A stretch of DNA of 41,378 bases from a virus. The notes below the pieces were generated by a model. It searched no databases. It saw only the letters and a list, made by a program, of their open reading frames with translations, and was not told where the DNA came from. The translations under genes and the position numbers were made by a program. The first letter of the stretch is position 1; every line of letters starts with the position of its first letter. This document shows positions 23,389 through 41,378 of this stretch, piece after piece. Location of the stretch: the IMG/VR virus record IMGVR_UViG_3300047453_000046, positions 1 to 41,378 of that record. One strand, 5' to 3'.

Positions 23389-24123
23389 TCAGGAGCAGTA
23401 ATTAACACCATTTCGATCCAGCATTCTCAGTAATGCAGTCCAAAATAAGTTTACATGCTCTGCTACGTCATTTGTTGGTGAGTCATTAATTCTTGCTATT
23501 TTATCCCATTCTGCTTTAGAAGGAACTGATAGTTCTGCACCAGTACGCAGAACATCGACTTGAATTTTGCAGGCGTTCTCAAGCATATAGAGGTTATAGA
23601 GAGCCTCTGGAATATTTTTGGCTACAGATAGTAAGCCATGATTTCGCATAATCAGTAAAGATTTATCTCCGATATCTTTTCCTAATTGGGCACATGATCT
23701 AGTATCGGGAACCTCGATACAATGATAGTCGTAATAGTTTATTTTGTTTTGTACTTCGCCTGATTGTTGTGATAAATTCATCAGTCCTTCTTTCATACAT
23801 GAAACTGCAATCCCCGCACGGGTGTGTGAGTGCAAAGTACAATTCACATCTTGTCGAGTTTTCATTATTGCCGTATGTATTGCATGTCCTGCATCCATAT
23901 AAGATTCTCCTGCTAAGATTTTCCCATCAAAATCAACCTTAACAAGATTAGATGCAGTTACTTCATCAAACATTAAACCATACGGTGTAGTTAAATAATG
24001 ATTTTTATTTTGAAGTAGCCGAGTACTTAAATGAGTGAAGATTACATCTGTCCAGCCAAAATGATGAAATAAGTGATGACAAGCGGCGAGATCACATCTT
24101 AATTTCCATTCAATATCTTCCAT
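23389..24123 (-). CDS. Class II aldolase / bacterial adducin-like protein
   Basis: A 244-residue protein across the whole class II aldolase/adducin domain. The zinc ligands are visible: H98 and H100 in NCTLHSHTRAG and H162 in MRNHGLL. The catalytic acid of fuculose- and rhamnulose-phosphate aldolases, expected four residues before H83, is Gly here (AGHAIH), as I recall for bacterial adducin-like members, so classical aldol cleavage of a sugar phosphate is doubtful. C-terminal NLYMLENACKIQVDVL is also typical of the adducin-like branch. It is a host-type metabolic gene rather than a phage core gene. It starts six bases after a TAAATA box and follows a terminator, so it has its own late or leaderless transcript. 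Confidence 0.85.
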   Translation of the reverse strand: MEDIEWKLRCDLAACHHLFHHFGWTDVIFTHLSTRLLQNKNHYLTTPYGLMFDEVTASNLVKVDFDGKILAGESYMDAGHAIHTAIMKTRQDVNCTLHSHTRAGIAVSCMKEGLMNLSQQSGEVQNKINYYDYHCIEVPDTRSCAQLGKDIGDKSLLIMRNHGLLSVAKNIPEALYNLYMLENACKIQVDVLRTGAELSVPSKAEWDKIARINDSPTNDVAEHVNLFWTALLRMLDRNGVNYCS

Positions 24124-29555: not shown

Positions 29556-30433
29556 TATGGCCTCAATTGATCTGTTTCTGGTTTGCCTGACCAGTTTTTA
29601 TTAAGATAGTCTAATCCTAATTCATGGAAGTAATATACGTTTCTACAAAATTCAAGTGGATAAAAATTTATAGTATTAGTATGGTTATCTCTTACATCTT
29701 TTTCTGTTTTTGGAGTATGTATTAGTATATCATGTAACTTAGCATGTTTACAGTCAGTCACTTCTATTTCATCGTAACGTTTTTCTATTTCTTTCCAAAC
29801 ATAATCTGCAAGGTGTTTATGTCCTTTTACTGTTTCATGTAAGCAAGGTGTCTTATCAAAATCTTTTGTAACTTCATTGAAATCTTTTAATTTGCCAGGA
29901 TGTAATTCTAATTCATTTGCTAAAATTGTTTCATATTTTTCGATAAAGTCACCAGTATTATCATCCACCCTTGGCATATAGTCAGTCATCAGATGATTGA
30001 TATTGTTTGCATCTAATAAACTATTAATACTTGTCCAACGATGTAATTTCTCTTGTTCCATTAAACAATAATAATAATCATCAGAGTTTAAAATTATTTC
30101 TTTTTCTAACTGCGAATGAGTTCTATAACCGTCGACAATATAAAAATGATGGGGAGGATTAGCATCTGCCAAATAGCATTCCCTACGTGATGATTGTGTA
30201 TATGCATGTATGTAAAAGGGATTATTATCATGCAAAAGGTCTTTGTAGAAGTATTGCATTGTTCTGCGAAAAAGTGCTTGATTTCCTTGACCGGGAATAG
30301 CAAGATTGATTAACGGAACACCTAACCGTTCTGCAATAATAGAAGCCCAACCATCTTTGATTGGATCTGATATTCCGTGTCCGTAAGTATAACTACAGCC
30401 GTTAACGACTAAGTGTGATATTTTTAATTTCAA
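29555..30433 (-). CDS. SGNH-like hydrolase-fold protein (third of three)
   Basis: 292 residues from a TTG at 30433 (a longer frame from another TTG at 30460 is possible). I chose TTG 30433 because GGAGAGAG lies nine bases upstream, the start overlaps the TGA of the IscA gene, and the protein then opens MKLKISHLVVNGCSYTYGHG, matching how relatives begin. GCSYTYG is the block I Ser, and AIPGQGNQALFRR near 50 is block II-like. The C-terminal TPCLHETVKGHKHLADYVW may supply the His. It is related in layout to the protein at 17464-18222. Substrate unknown; coupling to IscA upstream and the nuclease downstream may be only positional. Confidence 0.6.
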   Translation of the reverse strand: MKLKISHLVVNGCSYTYGHGISDPIKDGWASIIAERLGVPLINLAIPGQGNQALFRRTMQYFYKDLLHDNNPFYIHAYTQSSRRECYLADANPPHHFYIVDGYRTHSQLEKEIILNSDDYYYCLMEQEKLHRWTSINSLLDANNINHLMTDYMPRVDDNTGDFIEKYETILANELELHPGKLKDFNEVTKDFDKTPCLHETVKGHKHLADYVWKEIEKRYDEIEVTDCKHAKLHDILIHTPKTEKDVRDNHTNTINFYPLEFCRNVYYFHELGLDYLNKNWSGKPETDQLRP

Positions 30434-30747
30434 ATTGTAAAACTCTCTCCACAACCACAACGTGCTTTCTCTAGTGGGTTGATGAATTCAAATCCTTCAT
30501 TAAGTCCACTCTTTTGATAGTCTACAGTGATTCCTTCAAGTATAGTGTTAGCCTTTGGATCTATTAATATTGAAAAGCCTTCATATTCATTAATAATATC
30601 TTCTTCATTAATACTGTCTGCAAATTCAAGTTTATAAGCATATCCACTACATCCTGTAGTTTCGATACCTATACGAATTCCGACGCCTTTGCCGCGTTTT
30701 TCTAAATGGGCTTTAATTTTATCTTTTGCTATGTCTGTAACATCCAT
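30430..30747 (-). CDS. A-type iron-sulfur carrier protein (IscA/ErpA/HesB family)
   Basis: A 105-residue protein, full family length. The three conserved Cys are present: C33 in TTGCSGYAY, and C97 and C99 in ARCGCGESF. These proteins bind and hand over [2Fe-2S] or [4Fe-4S] clusters in the cytoplasm. A phage copy is an auxiliary metabolic gene, perhaps supporting cluster enzymes during infection; the recipient is unknown. ATG 30747 follows TAAATA by exactly five bases with no ribosome site, so translation is probably leaderless. Its stop overlaps the start of the SGNH-like gene. Confidence 0.92.
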   Translation of the reverse strand: MDVTDIAKDKIKAHLEKRGKGVGIRIGIETTGCSGYAYKLEFADSINEEDIINEYEGFSILIDPKANTILEGITVDYQKSGLNEGFEFINPLEKARCGCGESFTI

Positions 30748-35901: not shown

Positions 35902-37317
35902 TTATTTGTCTTTCAAAGTATTCAATAATGACTTCAATTTTGTACTTTGTACATCACCACTGACTCGTTTTTGCTCGGGCTCTACTTGATTTTCAACTAT
36001 TTCATTAGTTTGTCCCACTTGTGATGTAGTTTTAAACTTATCCATGATAGATTGTGCAGATGGTTGTGCTGTGTTGTGAGTTGGTGCATTAGTGCCTGGG
36101 TCTGTGATACGTAATGTTTCTATATCAAATGCTAATTCTACCTTTTGACCTACTCCTGAACTTGATCTTGTCTTCATTAACTGAATCTGATATTGTCCAC
36201 GTTCTCTCATACTACGTGATGTAAAGATACCGAACACATTGTCTGCTGTATTGATCTTACTGATACCACCTGAGATATGACTGTGATCAAATTCTATTTC
36301 TTCGACCGCACTTCTGTTTAACTGTGATGCAGTTACAAAGACTATATCTAATTCTTTTGCCAAGTTACGCAATTCTTCTGATACATACTTGTCTTTAACA
36401 AACAAGTCACTAGGACTTACTTTAGCACTTACAGGCATTAACAAATCCAAATAGTCAACACACATAAAGTCTAGTTTCTTGCCTGTTTGTATTTGTAATT
36501 CTCTTGTGTATGCTCTAAGATCATTGACTGTAGACTGTGCTGGGAAGTATTTAATTTGAAGATTTCCAGATGCTTTTTGTTTCATCTTTACTTTCATTTC
36601 AACGTTATCTAAGTCCTTAAACACTTCTTTAGTTTTAGTGTCAGTCAACATTGAATCTATACGCATTGCTGATAGTTCTTCACTTAACTCTAAAGTTACA
36701 TATATACCTGATAAGCCTTGCTCAACCCAATTGACTGATAGATTTTGCATGAACAATGATTTACCTGAACCCGAACCCCCTGCAAAGATTTGCAGTTCGC
36801 CTTTGTTGAATCCACCATAGAGTTTTTGATCTAAACAGGGCCAGCCTGTAGACGATTGTCCATTGCTTGATTTAAGATGCATAAGACGAGCCCTAGGATC
36901 ATCAAAGTAATCGATACCTAAGTCTCTTTGTAATGATATTTGTACAGCATCTTTGATTAACTTTTCGACAGGATCATAATCACCCTTTTCTAATAAGTCT
37001 GCTGAAGACATGATTGCTCTTTCTAACTCTTGTCTACGAGTAAACGATTCAAACTCAGTCATAAACCATTCATAATGACCCTCATCTAAATCAGCAACTG
37101 GATCAATTGTTTCTCCTGTTGTTGCTTTGATTTGTGTTGAGTCAGGCAATATTTTATATTGATCTGAATGTTCTCTCATAAACTCTGCAACAGGTCGTAG
37201 TCTTCTGTCAAAGTTTTCTGCGTTAAAAATATTAGCAACCCTAACAAACAACTCTGCGTTTGTTATCATCATTCTTAAGAACAATTCTTGTACTTCTATG
37301 TTAAATTCTTTTAGCAA
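35902..37317 (-). CDS. 41: Replicative DNA helicase gp41 (DnaB family)
   Basis: A 471-residue protein, matching T4 gp41 (475). The Walker A loop GGSGSGKS is at 180-187, followed by LFMQNLSVNWVEQGLSGIYVTLELS. Walker B-like LDFMCVDYLDLL lies near 280-290. A later HISGGISKINTADNVFGI segment carries the DnaB-family helicase motif. gp41 is a hexameric 5'-3' helicase that unwinds the fork and pairs with the gp61 primase. Its start overlaps the end of gp61 by 17 bases, so the two are coupled. The C-terminal 60 residues are polar and probably bind partners. Confidence 0.95.
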   Translation of the reverse strand: MLKEFNIEVQELFLRMMITNAELFVRVANIFNAENFDRRLRPVAEFMREHSDQYKILPDSTQIKATTGETIDPVADLDEGHYEWFMTEFESFTRRQELERAIMSSADLLEKGDYDPVEKLIKDAVQISLQRDLGIDYFDDPRARLMHLKSSNGQSSTGWPCLDQKLYGGFNKGELQIFAGGSGSGKSLFMQNLSVNWVEQGLSGIYVTLELSEELSAMRIDSMLTDTKTKEVFKDLDNVEMKVKMKQKASGNLQIKYFPAQSTVNDLRAYTRELQIQTGKKLDFMCVDYLDLLMPVSAKVSPSDLFVKDKYVSEELRNLAKELDIVFVTASQLNRSAVEEIEFDHSHISGGISKINTADNVFGIFTSRSMRERGQYQIQLMKTRSSSGVGQKVELAFDIETLRITDPGTNAPTHNTAQPSAQSIMDKFKTTSQVGQTNEIVENQVEPEQKRVSGDVQSTKLKSLLNTLKDK

Positions 37318-38275
37318 TTTTATTCCTCATAACTTCTACTTTTATTTTGCTGTTTGTAGCAGAGTCTAATATACTTAGTAATGTATTCAGACGACCATAT
37401 TTAATTACGGCATCGTTTGCATCTTTAATGTCTTCTGACCAGTTAGGTAATGACACATCAAAACCTAATTCTAATGCTCTTTCGCATATACCTAATCCTG
37501 TCTGATCCTGATCAGGGACAACAATTACACGTTTACCCAATTTGTTAATTACAGCAACTTGATTGTCATTGATTGTGTCATGTGTCAATGCTAAACCGTT
37601 CATTGAGATAGCATCAAAAATACCTTCAAAGACTAATACGACTTCCCATTCATCCTTCTGTAAGTCAGTACCAAATACATATCCTTGTTGCTGATCATTT
37701 ATGAACTTAGGATTTCTGTCGTCCATAAATCTTATTGTACTACCAACAACTTTATTTTCATATGTATAAGGGATAATTATACCCTGTGCTTGTCTACCCT
37801 CTGCATTAGGACTGACCATAAAAGGATAGTCGTTATGTTGTAGTCCCCTTTTGTTCAAGTAGTCAATGTAGACTTGATGATCTTTATTAGCAGTATAAAT
37901 CAACTCACCTTCTGGCATTGATTGTTCTTTAAATTTAGGCAACTTCTGCTGTTTCTTTTTGTGTAGAATAGATTCTAACAAATCTTTATGTTGTATAGAA
38001 TGTAAAGACCATTTATTAATATCTTGGTCTGGCATATTACACCACGACAAGAAGTTACGTGTACGTTTGCTAATTGCTCTACCTAATTTAAAACCGCACT
38101 TAAAGTTACAGTTAAAACAATGATAGTTCCAATCATCTCCGTCTGCTTTAATTCCCCCTCGCATTCTTTTGTCAGGGTTATGTCCATTATGCTGGCAACA
38201 AGGCGCATTGAATGAAGTCCAACCGCTTTGCGTTTGCTTCTTTTTGCCCGGGACAATCGTAAGTATATCAAACAT
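37301..38275 (-). CDS. 61: DNA primase gp61
   Basis: A 324-residue protein (T4 gp61 is 342). The N-terminal zinc-binding domain shows C26-C27, H29/H32 and C53-xx-C56. The Toprim domain has LVFEGIFDA (EGxxD at 217-221) and VVPDQDQTG (DxD at 255-257), which hold the catalytic metal ions. It makes RNA primers for lagging-strand synthesis, with gp41. A sigma70-type promoter ends seven bases before ATG 38275 and no ribosome site is visible, so early or middle expression from a leaderless message is likely. Upstream is a virion-like gene with a late promoter. Confidence 0.93.
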   Translation of the reverse strand: MFDILTIVPGKKKQTQSGWTSFNAPCCQHNGHNPDKRMRGGIKADGDDWNYHCFNCNFKCGFKLGRAISKRTRNFLSWCNMPDQDINKWSLHSIQHKDLLESILHKKKQQKLPKFKEQSMPEGELIYTANKDHQVYIDYLNKRGLQHNDYPFMVSPNAEGRQAQGIIIPYTYENKVVGSTIRFMDDRNPKFINDQQQGYVFGTDLQKDEWEVVLVFEGIFDAISMNGLALTHDTINDNQVAVINKLGKRVIVVPDQDQTGLGICERALELGFDVSLPNWSEDIKDANDAVIKYGRLNTLLSILDSATNSKIKVEVMRNKIAKRI

Positions 38276-39218: not shown

Positions 39219-39611
39219 ATGACAGATTCAAAAAAACCAATCGACTTTTTCGTAAAACTGACAGAAACTCACCCGTTTATTTCGGTGTTGCAATATGCCG
39301 GGGCAGACTTTGTTGGTATCGTTCAGAACCGTGATGATCTTGTTACAACTATATATGATTACGGTGCGATAGTTGATGCAGAAAAACGAATGAAGTTTTT
39401 AGAGTTAGGAGATGTTTGGTGGTGGGAATCGAATCGTCAAATACCTATTCATTTATTTCTTAAGCAAGAGTGGGCTATGTTTAAGCCTTTCTTAAGAACA
39501 TTTAATAACAAATCATTGACATTGTTACATGGACCTATTGTATCAATGACTGACTTTCAAAAGAAAAGAGTTAAAAGAAAATCGATTACGTTGGTGAAGA
39601 GACCTTACTAA
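39219..39611 (+). CDS. Conserved marine T4-like phage protein, function unknown
   Basis: A 130-residue protein on the plus strand among minus-strand genes. Distinctive pieces are KPIDFFVKLTETHPFISVLQ, GADFVGIVQNRDDLVTTIYDYG, LGDVWWWESNRQIPIHLFLK and a basic C-terminus (KKRVKRKSITLVKRPY). I recall this pattern widely in marine T4-like phages without a role. Its last 26 bases overlap the end of peptide deformylase on the other strand, so the two transcripts are antisense at their ends. It has a near-leaderless late-type box. Confidence 0.7.
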   Translation: MTDSKKPIDFFVKLTETHPFISVLQYAGADFVGIVQNRDDLVTTIYDYGAIVDAEKRMKFLELGDVWWWESNRQIPIHLFLKQEWAMFKPFLRTFNNKSLTLLHGPIVSMTDFQKKRVKRKSITLVKRPY

Positions 39612-40143
39612 GTCTTTTAGCCATCTTAGCCTTTTGACGTTTCTTCTTTGCTCTACGTTTCTTAGCCAATTCTAAACTCATCTTACTTTGTACACGTTCT
39701 TCAAACGTTACACCTAATAAATGATCAAACTCATGCAAGAATACACGTGCTTGTATGCCATCCATATGTTTTCCTTTGACAACTTCTCCGTCGATCTGCT
39801 GATATGATACTACACATTCAGTGTGTCTTCGTACATGCAACCAAAGATCAGGATAACTAAGACAACCTTCTAAAAATAATTCTTGCTCTCCTTTAAGTTC
39901 ATCGACTTGAGGATTAATAAAAGCCATTAGTTTTTCATCAGTGCCCATGATGAATATATTTTTCATCACTCCTAACTGAGGCGCCGCTAAACCGATGCCT
40001 AAATGATTAGGATTAAACATAACTTTTGTCATTGCTTTAATTAGTTCAGTTGGATCACCGTCAAGTTTAAAGTCCCATGGTTCACAAGGTTCCTTAAGTC
40101 TAGGATCGTTTTCTGCAATTAATGTTAAGTTAAGTTCTTCCAT
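39586..40143 (-). CDS. def: Peptide deformylase
   Basis: A 185-residue protein. All three metal and active-site motifs are intact: GIGLAAPQ (49-56), EGCLS (92-96, metal ligand C94), and HEFDH (137-141). It removes the formyl group from the initiator Met of new proteins. Phage copies are common auxiliary genes in marine phages. Unlike many phage versions, this one has the normal N-terminal helix and also a Lys/Arg-rich C-terminal tail (about 161-180) that could bind the ribosome; that is inference. The ATG overlaps the stop of the 91-residue gene (TAATG). Confidence 0.95.
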   Translation of the reverse strand: MEELNLTLIAENDPRLKEPCEPWDFKLDGDPTELIKAMTKVMFNPNHLGIGLAAPQLGVMKNIFIMGTDEKLMAFINPQVDELKGEQELFLEGCLSYPDLWLHVRRHTECVVSYQQIDGEVVKGKHMDGIQARVFLHEFDHLLGVTFEERVQSKMSLELAKKRRAKKKRQKAKMAKRLSKVSSPT

Positions 40144-40418
40144 TATCTGTTGTGTCTTCCAAATTCATCAAGTAAGTCTTGACCACTAAGTCGTGTTCCA
40201 ATTATTTCTTTTTTGCCTGACACCATGTACTCTCTTTCGATAGTACCGTCATTATATTCAACGTCTATCACACGTAAATCATCACCAGTTCTGTCTGGAT
40301 TGTTGTCGTACCACATTGTAGTAAACGAATGTGCATGTACTGCTTTAACGCCCTTTGACCACTCTTCGGCTTTCATCATTTGTCTTTGTCTCTCAACGAC
40401 TGCATCATATTGACTCAT
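40143..40418 (-). CDS. 91-residue protein, function unknown
   Basis: A small, charged protein (MSQYDAVVERQRQMMKAEEW; HAHSFTTMWYDNNPDRTGDD; VDVEYNDGTIEREYMVSGKK). The middle looks like a short beta sheet. No motif is recognised. Its start overlaps the mini-DnaE gene by 14 bases, with AGAGGA upstream, and its stop overlaps the deformylase start, so all four right-end genes form one operon. Confidence 0.65.
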   Translation of the reverse strand: MSQYDAVVERQRQMMKAEEWSKGVKAVHAHSFTTMWYDNNPDRTGDDLRVIDVEYNDGTIEREYMVSGKKEIIGTRLSGQDLLDEFGRHNR

Positions 40419-40986
40419 CTTGTTCCTCTAATAAATTCATATGCACTACAACTAGTTGTGCATATGCCACTGCATGTGATTTTTTAAATGTGTATCCTGT
40501 ATTGTTGTCAATCCACACAGTTTTACTTATCTCTTTCCATGTCTGCCCAATAAGATTTCTCTTTGCTGGACGAATTACTGCCAAGAACATTGCTAGTCTT
40601 GGAATGCTATTAATAGGTTCTGGCATCTGTTGCATAACATCATATTGCTTGTTTAAATGCAACAACACTGATACAAAATTTCTTTCTTTTAAACGTTCCC
40701 AGTTAGGTTCAGCCATTAGACTTATCAAATGCATTTCATCTTGTACTGCTTTATAGATGTTTACGTTTAATAAATCTAATTTAAAGTACCCTCGTTCATC
40801 TGCTTCTTTGTAATCTAAGTTGCACATGTCGTTTACAGGATCATAGGGTACATCTGTAATGTACACCCCAGTAGGATGTTTCTTCATTGGTTGTTGTTCA
40901 CGCATTGCCGCAGGAACATGTTTAATTAGTTTAAGTAATTTACTTCTGTCTCCGAAGTCTATGTCAATATCTGACTGTATACTCAT
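40405..40986 (-). CDS. Miniature DnaE-like protein (DNA polymerase III alpha palm motifs)
   Basis: A 193-residue protein; cellular DnaE is over 1000. The landmarks of bacterial C-family polymerases occur in order: DIDIDFGDR (6-14; D8 and D10 match the D-x-D-F pair of the active site), KHPTGVYIT (36-44; cf. KHAGGVVIA), GYFKLDLLN (66-74; D71 matches the third catalytic Asp in KFDFLGL), RLAMFLAVIRP (130-140; cf. LVALFRPGP), and GYTFKKSHAVAYAQL (164-178; cf. GYGFNKSHSAAYAL). The thumb, most of the fingers, and the PHP and tail domains are missing. Whether it polymerises, binds DNA or is regulatory is unknown. Its ATG overlaps the stop of the exonuclease gene (ATGA). Confidence 0.7.
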   Translation of the reverse strand: MSIQSDIDIDFGDRSKLLKLIKHVPAAMREQQPMKKHPTGVYITDVPYDPVNDMCNLDYKEADERGYFKLDLLNVNIYKAVQDEMHLISLMAEPNWERLKERNFVSVLLHLNKQYDVMQQMPEPINSIPRLAMFLAVIRPAKRNLIGQTWKEISKTVWIDNNTGYTFKKSHAVAYAQLVVVHMNLLEEQDESI

Positions 40987-41378
40987 TTAAGTCCTGCTTG
41001 TTTAAGTTTCTGATATGCACGTTGTACAACTATTGCTTGATGCTCTGCATCTTCTACGGCTTTGTGAGATGTTACTGCTTGACCATCTTTAAGAGACACA
41101 TTACAAAGATCATAAATTGTACGTGTATCTCTAATAGTATAGAAAGGCCAGGGTATCGGACTCTCTAATTGCCTAAAGGCGTTTTCAGCCACAACAATAT
41201 CAAAACCAGCACCATTACTCCAAACTGCTCTGCGGTTCCAACAGAATTTATATAGTTTATCCATAGCATCTTTGAACGAGATTCTATCGTTGTCGCCCAT
41301 TGCTTCATTGATTGCATCTTCACTTTGTTCTCCCCACCACCTTAGTGTATCTGGATTTATGTGTCTGTTAAATTGTTC
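40983..41378 (-). CDS. dexA: DEDD-type 3'-5' exonuclease, DexA/Rv2179c-like, N-terminus beyond the window
   Basis: The open frame continues through the right edge (131 residues visible), so an ATG at 41300 is internal, not the start. Visible pieces: HINPDTLRWWGEQSEDA, as in DexA-like proteins (T4 DexA has WWKNQSPEA); VWSNGAGFDIVVAENAF with the exonuclease Asp; IRDTRTIYDL; and AVEDAEHQAIVVQRAY with the last Asp (ExoIII-type motif). The first catalytic D-x-E lies outside the window. It is expected to degrade single-stranded DNA or RNA from the 3' end. It directly precedes the mini-DnaE gene with a four-base overlap. The name dexA is by resemblance. Confidence 0.75.
   Translation of the reverse strand, partial: EQFNRHINPDTLRWWGEQSEDAINEAMGDNDRISFKDAMDKLYKFCWNRRAVWSNGAGFDIVVAENAFRQLESPIPWPFYTIRDTRTIYDLCNVSLKDGQAVTSHKAVEDAEHQAIVVQRAYQKLKQAGLK

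What the first reader, a model, noticed from the sequence alone, without database searches (positions are those of the whole stretch)
40405..40986. A 193-residue protein that keeps the DnaE active-site landmarks in order
D-x-D-F, K-H-x-G-V, K-x-D-x-L, the I-R-P block and the K-K-S-H-A-x-A-Y-A block of polymerase III alpha all occur in the right order in a protein one fifth the normal length. All three catalytic Asp positions are filled. The T4-like replisome uses a B-family polymerase (gp43), so a shrunken C-family palm is not expected. It might be a minimal polymerase, a repair or terminal-transfer enzyme, or a decoy for host polymerase III.
Basis: partly seen in the sequence, partly recalled or inferred. 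Interest (0 to 1): 0.85.

Follow-up and report, generated by a model that had tools for sequence, protein, structure and literature searches.

The report
Half of a split mini Pol III
This phage gene encodes the metal-binding half of a shrunken, two-piece version of the bacterial chromosome-copying polymerase; the other half is made by a separate gene in related phages, the arrangement was predicted in print in 2021, and I found no experimental test of it.

Summary
The 193-aa ORF (40405-40986, minus strand) is real and under strong purifying selection. It belongs to phrog_11778, and its Pol III alpha landmarks are genuine: profile and AlphaFold/structure comparison place it on E. coli DnaE 399-781, minus most of the thumb and part of the fingers. 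D6, D8, D10 and D71 (E. coli D401, D403, D405, D555) are invariant in the relatives aligned.

It is not a complete minimal polymerase. It begins at the DxDxDF strand and lacks the palm segment with the nucleotide-binding GRGS motif. Relatives encode that segment in a second, distant gene (phrog_11127; E. coli 278-393). The halves meet in one DnaE loop without overlap. Of 63 phage records with the C-half, 61 also have the N-half; all 10 phage records searched have a B-family polymerase. The window is a 41-kb fragment without its N-half; an 89-kb relative has both.

The split was described for group 2.2 jumbo phages in 2021 (PMC7824862). Added here: the cut point, 141-kb phages, and an intact DEDDh exonuclease just upstream of the C-half in 60 of 89 loci (overlapping by four bases in 38), an alpha-epsilon-like pairing. 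Whether the complex polymerises is untested. New member of a known kind.

The parts
40405..40986 (-). C-terminal half of a split minimal DNA polymerase III alpha (phrog_11778), 193 aa
40954..40971 (-). DIDIDF, residues 6-11; D6/D8/D10 = E. coli DnaE D401/D403/D405; the protein starts just before this strand
40864..40881 (-). KHPTGV, residues 36-41 (E. coli K510-H511 region)
40768..40782 (-). KLDLL, residues 69-73; D71 = E. coli D555, K69 = K553
40567..40575 (-). IRP, residues 138-140 (E. coli F638-R639-P640); the finger segment that follows in DnaE is deleted here
40459..40485 (-). KKSHAVAYA, residues 168-176 (E. coli NKSHSAAYA from N757)
40983..41378 (-). Rv2179c/DnaQ-like 3'-5' exonuclease, 5' part cut by the window end; its stop overlaps the C-half start by 4 bases. 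Same-strand homologue ending 0-1 kb upstream or overlapping in 60 of 89 C-half loci (4-base overlap in 38), near only 3 of 74 N-half loci
39219..39611 (+). convergent ORF phrog_11637, also convergent beside the C-half in RaK2; present in at least 53 of 89 relative loci
37301..38275 (-). DNA primase (T4 gp61 position); its family lies near the C-half in at least 81 of 89 loci
35902..37317 (-). DnaB-like replicative helicase (T4 gp41 position); its family lies near the C-half in at least 76 of 89 loci

Best explanation
The ORF encodes the metal-binding half of a two-polypeptide, minimal C-family nucleotidyltransferase, most likely a DNA polymerase with a separate proofreading exonuclease. Shown: it is homologous to DnaE 399-781 minus most of the thumb and part of the fingers; its active-site residues are invariant in the relatives aligned; relatives carry a second gene for DnaE 278-393 with the GRGS loop, ending in the same DnaE loop where this one begins; the two genes co-occur; a DEDDh exonuclease gene with intact active-site residues commonly precedes the C-half. 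Inferred: the two halves fold together non-covalently, GRGS of the N-half holds the triphosphate, D6/D8/D71 bind two metals, the H37/K69/R139/KKSH face contacts substrate, and the coupled exonuclease proofreads as epsilon does for alpha. With little thumb and no PHP, clamp-binding or tau-binding domain in either half, the enzyme should be distributive. I expect gap filling, Okazaki-fragment or repair synthesis beside the B-family replicase, among the primase, helicase and clamp-loader proteins whose genes flank the halves.
For: Structure, C-half: Z 9.4 to PolC, 9.3 to Taq Pol III alpha, 8.8 to E. coli 399-781. N-half: best Z 10.5; 8.8 on E. coli 278-393. Sequence: N-half PF07733 and hhalign E 2.3e-9; C-half. 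Conservation: D6/D8/D10 in 133 of 134 rows, K69/D71 in 134 of 134 (133 unique sequences, the window counted twice); N-half GRGS in 103 of 103 rows, one being E. coli DnaE. dN/dS 0.04-0.15 in 12 pairs. Co-occurrence: N in 61 of 63 phage records with C; N without C in 0 of 57 phage records; 8 of the 9 IMG/VR contigs over 200 kb have N, C and PolB. Exonuclease upstream of C in 60 of 89 loci, with D8, E10, D109, H154, D159 in 58 of 58 full-length copies. Other neighbours: primase family 81 of 89 and helicase family 76 of 89 for C, clamp-loader AAA protein 69 of 74 for N (lower bounds).
Against: No measured activity and no modelled complex. The window's own phage has not been shown to carry the N-half or PolB (none in this 41-kb fragment). 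The E. coli finger segment with YQEQ (686) and RRAMGKK (709) is deleted, so dNTP binding must differ. N and C genes are not neighbours: none of 180 C-positive and 135 N-positive loci held both (flanks up to 10 kb, many shorter). One phage record with C lacks a detectable N (PP728206, 109 kb, labelled unverified) and one was not examined; IMG/VR contigs of 191 and 201 kb have C but no N found. Phage records are highly redundant. One relative (L047) has an in-frame stop after residue 106. The exonuclease was not found within 8 kb in 29 of 89 loci, among them all seven isolated-phage loci. The GRGS loop is the least certain part of the N-half model (block 131-140, mean pLDDT 67).
Confidence: 0.75

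Rival explanations
1. The assembled pair is a nucleotidyltransferase but not a templated polymerase (terminal transferase, short end filling, or modification of another substrate).
For: Catalytic residues are kept, but most of the thumb and the finger segment with the Arg pair are gone, which would weaken template and dNTP grip.
Against: DnaE landmarks outside the metal site (IRP, KKSHAxAY) are kept; a DEDDh exonuclease gene precedes the C-half in 60 of 89 loci, which suits templated synthesis with proofreading; the genes lie among primase, helicase and clamp-loader genes.
Confidence: 0.2
2. The pair is a catalytically silent scaffold or a decoy that binds host Pol III partners or primer ends.
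For: It resembles part of host Pol III alpha, and the phages have their own B-family polymerase.
Against: Metal-binding Asp and GRGS are invariant and dN/dS is low; a decoy need not keep them. Hosts span many bacteria.
Confidence: 0.1
3. The window protein acts alone as a minimal polymerase.
For: It is modelled with confidence alone (pLDDT 92.6) and keeps three Asp.
Against: It lacks the GRGS-bearing palm segment, which a co-occurring second gene supplies.
Confidence: 0.05

Closest known systems
Split minimal DNA polymerase III alpha of group 2.2 jumbo phages (PMC7824862, passages read; phrog_11127 + phrog_11778)
   Same: Two stand-alone proteins from distant genes, an N-terminal NTP-binding and a C-terminal Mg/template-binding part, beside a family B polymerase; the window protein is the C-terminal one.
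   Different: Found here in marine fragments of unknown genome size and in 141-kb phages below the jumbo limit; cut point placed between E. coli residues 393 and 399-401; coupling to an exonuclease gene, which the passages I read do not mention.
Bacterial DNA polymerase III alpha (DnaE) and PolC
   Same: Palm fold, three Asp, K553/D555 block, RP and KSHxAxY blocks; Z 8.8-9.4 to PolC, Taq and E. coli 2hnh.
   Different: No PHP found, most of the thumb missing, RRAMGKK finger segment missing, nothing after the KSHxAxY helix, chain split before the first Asp strand.
Pol III epsilon (DnaQ) paired with alpha
   Same: A DEDDh exonuclease gene lies immediately upstream of the C-half, often with a 4-base overlap.
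   Different: Rv2179c-like family (PF16473); binding to the C-half is not shown.
Unsplit 559-aa DnaE-like protein of an IMG/VR phage contig (L333:4890-6569, G014)
   Same: Phage C-family polymerase without PHP match, near a B-family polymerase gene, in a contig that also has both split halves.
   Different: One chain that matches PF07733 to its end and the finger domain PF17657; RRAFAKK kept.

Membership tests
Split minimal Pol III alpha (group 2.2 phages) | Stand-alone C-terminal catalytic part homologous to DnaE | tested here: met
Split minimal Pol III alpha (group 2.2 phages) | Separate N-terminal GRGS part in the same genome | tested here: inconclusive
   Not in this 41-kb fragment; present in the 89-kb relative with a 94% identical C-half and in 61 of 63 phage records
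Split minimal Pol III alpha (group 2.2 phages) | Family B polymerase in the same phage | tested here: inconclusive
   None in the fragment; present in 6 of 6 phage records and 4 of 4 phage records
Split minimal Pol III alpha (group 2.2 phages) | Jumbo genome (>200 kb) | not testable with these tools
   The window is a fragment; two complete relatives are 141 kb, so size is not required
C-family DNA polymerase (full DnaE/PolC) | Palm with three catalytic Asp | tested here: met
   distances between the Asp not measured
C-family DNA polymerase (full DnaE/PolC) | GRGS nucleotide-binding loop in the same chain | tested here: not met
   The ORF starts five residues before the first Asp
C-family DNA polymerase (full DnaE/PolC) | PHP domain and finger domain | tested here: not met
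   No Pfam match in this ORF, only PF07733 in four N-halves; E. coli YQEQ and RRAMGKK fall in the deletion
C-family DNA polymerase (full DnaE/PolC) | Templated DNA synthesis | not testable with these tools
   needs biochemistry

The most novel reading that the evidence does not exclude
The two small proteins (about 360 residues together) form an obligate heterodimeric, templated DNA polymerase, the smallest C-family polymerase, whose one active site is shared between chains encoded 11 kb or more apart, and which is proofread in trans by a translationally coupled DEDDh exonuclease: a three-piece miniature of the Pol III alpha-epsilon core, working as a second polymerase beside the T4-type B-family replicase, also in non-jumbo phages.
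Probability: 0.43. Interest if true: 0.72.

Novelty: new member of a known kind. Interest (0 to 1): 0.48.

Why it matters
If active, the system would show how little of a bacterial replicase is needed for catalysis, how one polymerase active site can be shared by two proteins, and how proofreading can be kept by a coupled exonuclease. It would give T4-type phages a second replication or repair polymerase. It is testable with two or three small proteins. Against that, the split was already described in 2021; what remains open is function.

Tried and rejected
Decoy or silent protein: not favoured (invariant Asp and GRGS; low dN/dS). Sole minimal polymerase: rejected on the missing palm segment. 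Pseudogene: rejected for the family (dN/dS 0.04-0.15; dS is near saturation in the four most distant of 12 pairs), though one relative, L047, has an in-frame stop. Trans-splicing of an intein-split DnaE: not favoured, because both halves end at DnaE positions without an obvious extra segment (inspection; no intein profile was run). Cellular origin of the C-half: 11 hits in genome contigs, all titled MAG; in one (Neomarinimicrobiota) N, C and PolB lie on one contig, so binned phage contigs are the likely source (not shown for each). PDB sequence searches for the C-half found no polymerase. hhalign with A3 alone found no match; adding the divergent phage sequences gave the collinear matches. With relaxed gap costs one search also gave an out-of-register alignment (6-178 to template 315-497), not used. 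Exonuclease count: my first script skipped ORFs that overlap the C-half and gave 22 of 89; the recount without that fault gives 60 of 89. One search has the same fault, so its counts are lower bounds. The corrected count raised my odds for templated synthesis slightly. Distances between the Asp could not be measured and no complex model was possible.

Papers: searches (20 of 44 papers listed; 10 of 449 listed; none found). The only description of the split that I saw is PMC7824862 (passages). PMC5259590 (passages): a truncated 172-aa Pol III alpha-like protein and an epsilon-like protein in phage CBB. PMC6102473 (passage): Pol III alpha and epsilon subunits in Atu_ph07 and most Rak2-like phages. 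PMC9123017 (passages): PF07733 in 51.9% of one group of marine jumbo phages, split or not unstated. PMC6892783 (passages): a split intein in PolB of MIJ3. PMC13282480 (passages): review, does not hold 'DNA polymerase III' or 'split'.

Full report
What is there. ORF 40405-40986 (-) encodes 193 aa. It matches phrog_11778 ('DNA polymerase', E 2e-54) and no Pfam family. tblastn finds it in 63 of 50,697 phage records, all below 60% identity; the first viral-contig scan confirmed 414 related stretches and kept 80. Between the window and 12 relatives dN/dS is 0.04-0.15.

Homology to Pol III alpha. A profile of 133 family rows (of 134; one short row dropped by a length filter) against 50 DnaE cores gives collinear local matches: 1-11 to E. 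coli 399-406 (weak alone, E 0.013), 36-141 to 510-641 (E 3.8e-5), 164-178 to 753-767 (E 3.6e-5). None of 100 column shuffles came near (best 24.5 against 42.7). Alignment A3 alone gave no match and PDB sequence searches found no polymerase, so sequence evidence is modest. The AF2 model from 82 sequences (pLDDT 92.6, pTM 0.83) aligns over nearly its full length with C-family polymerases: PolC Z 9.4, Taq 9.3, E. coli 2hnh 399-781 Z 8.8; the first unrelated row is Z 3.2. Foldseek alone ranks Pol III alpha entries 1-11, but with E no better than 7e-3.

What is missing. Between D403 and H511 of E. coli the protein keeps 28 residues instead of 107, removing most of the thumb. Between R639 and K758 it keeps 29 instead of 118, removing the segment with YQEQ (686) and RRAMGKK (709) (that these residues grip the dNTP is recalled). 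Upstream, the chain starts five residues before the first Asp, so the palm part with GPGRGS (E. coli 359-364) is absent.

Where the missing palm part is. PF07733 rings in all six complete phage records tested and in two of eight IMG/VR fragments, each time in a separate small ORF (168-177 aa in the four read). These four match phrog_11127 and PF07733. The AF2 model of one (pLDDT 90.3) aligns with E. coli 278-393 (Z 8.8; best Z 10.5 to 5lew), and the profile aligns to position 393 (E 2.3e-9). The C-half begins at 399-401. Thus the chain is cut in the loop between FERFL and PDFDVDF, without overlap. The GRGS loop is the least confident part of the N model (block 131-140, mean pLDDT 67), as expected if it orders on assembly (inference).

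Co-occurrence. All 57 phage records with the N-half by tblastn are among those with the C-half (56 listed, one). Four further C records have the N-half by profile. One (PP728206, 109 kb, labelled unverified) has none found; one record was never listed and not examined. Many records are near-duplicates. Of 30 records given, each chosen because it had N or C, 27 have N, 25 have C and 23 have PolB. Of the nine IMG/VR contigs over 200 kb among them, eight have all three; the ninth (201 kb) has only C. In one search PolB was found in 6 of 14 records: all six phages, none of the eight IMG/VR fragments. None of 180 C-positive and 135 N-positive loci (one of the latter is E. coli dnaE; flanks up to 10 kb, many shorter) held both halves. 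Examples of spacing: about 11 kb in Slicko01, 33 kb in RaK2.

Conservation. In 134 rows (133 unique, the window counted twice; E. coli not included) D6, D8, D10, H37, G40, R139, P140, H171 and Y175 are kept in 133, K69 and D71 in 134. The missing cells at the seven of these positions re-examined belong to L052, cut by its contig end, and L047, which has an in-frame stop after residue 106. GRGS is kept in 103 of 103 N rows, one being E. coli DnaE.

A coupled exonuclease. In the window the stop of a DnaQ-like exonuclease (PF16473, E 3.9e-23) overlaps the C-half start by four bases. Of 89 C loci (unique proteins, loci of at least 9 kb) 60 have a same-strand homologue just upstream (up to 1,006 bases) or overlapping, 38 with exactly this four-base overlap; only 3 of 74 N loci have one within 8 kb. 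My earlier count of 22 had skipped overlapping ORFs. In 58 full-length copies D8, E10, D109, H154 and D159, a full DEDDh set, are kept in 58 (that these are the catalytic residues of the family is recalled). The 29 loci without it include all seven isolated-phage loci. Some of those or related phages carry genes annotated as Pol III epsilon or 'DNA polymerase exonuclease subunit' a few kilobases away (RaK2; XacN1). An alpha-epsilon-like pairing is therefore plausible; binding is not shown.

Other neighbours (lower bounds, because ORFs overlapping the half were skipped; families named, primase and helicase by likeness to the window ORFs): near C, primase 81 of 89, helicase 76, a second helicase (UvsW-like) 54, convergent phrog_11637 53; near N, clamp-loader AAA protein 69 of 74, GroES/head-morphogenesis-like protein 65.

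Known or new. [quoted passage not shown] The window protein is the C-terminal part. Added here: cut point, deletion map, invariance, co-occurrence counts, structural alignment of both halves, exonuclease coupling, and presence in complete 141-kb phages (Slicko01, Slickus01). No experimental test appeared in the rows listed by four searches of an open-licence library.

Mechanism. Most likely the two chains assemble into one palm that catalyses templated nucleotidyl transfer, proofread by the coupled exonuclease; shown and inferred steps are separated in the best explanation. Activity, substrate and role remain untested.

Noticed in passing
L333:4890-6569 (+), from IMG/VR contig G014: A 559-aa unsplit DnaE-like protein without a PHP match (PF07733 E 1.3e-42, PF17657 E 1.4e-16) about 1.7 kb from a 901-aa B-family polymerase gene, in a contig that also has both split Pol III halves: three polymerase-like systems in one phage.
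   Followed up: partly
window 40983-41378 (-): The exonuclease just upstream of the C-half is part of a conserved, often overlapping gene pair in relatives (60 of 89 loci).
   Followed up: yes
window 39586-40143 (-): Peptide deformylase gene (PF01327, E 1.6e-33) two genes downstream of the C-half.
   Followed up: no
window 30430-30747 (-): A-type iron-sulphur carrier-like protein (PF01521, E 7.9e-16) in a phage.
   Followed up: no
window 23389-24123 (-): Class II aldolase/adducin-like protein (PF00596, E 4.4e-43) in a phage.
   Followed up: no
window 39219-39611 (+): Small ORF of phrog_11637, unknown function, convergent to its neighbours here and in RaK2, conserved near the C-half in at least 53 of 89 loci.
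   Followed up: partly
N-half residues 1-60 (for example L110:10001-10180): The N-half has an N-terminal part of about 60 residues that the structure comparison with DnaE barely covers; function unknown.
   Followed up: no
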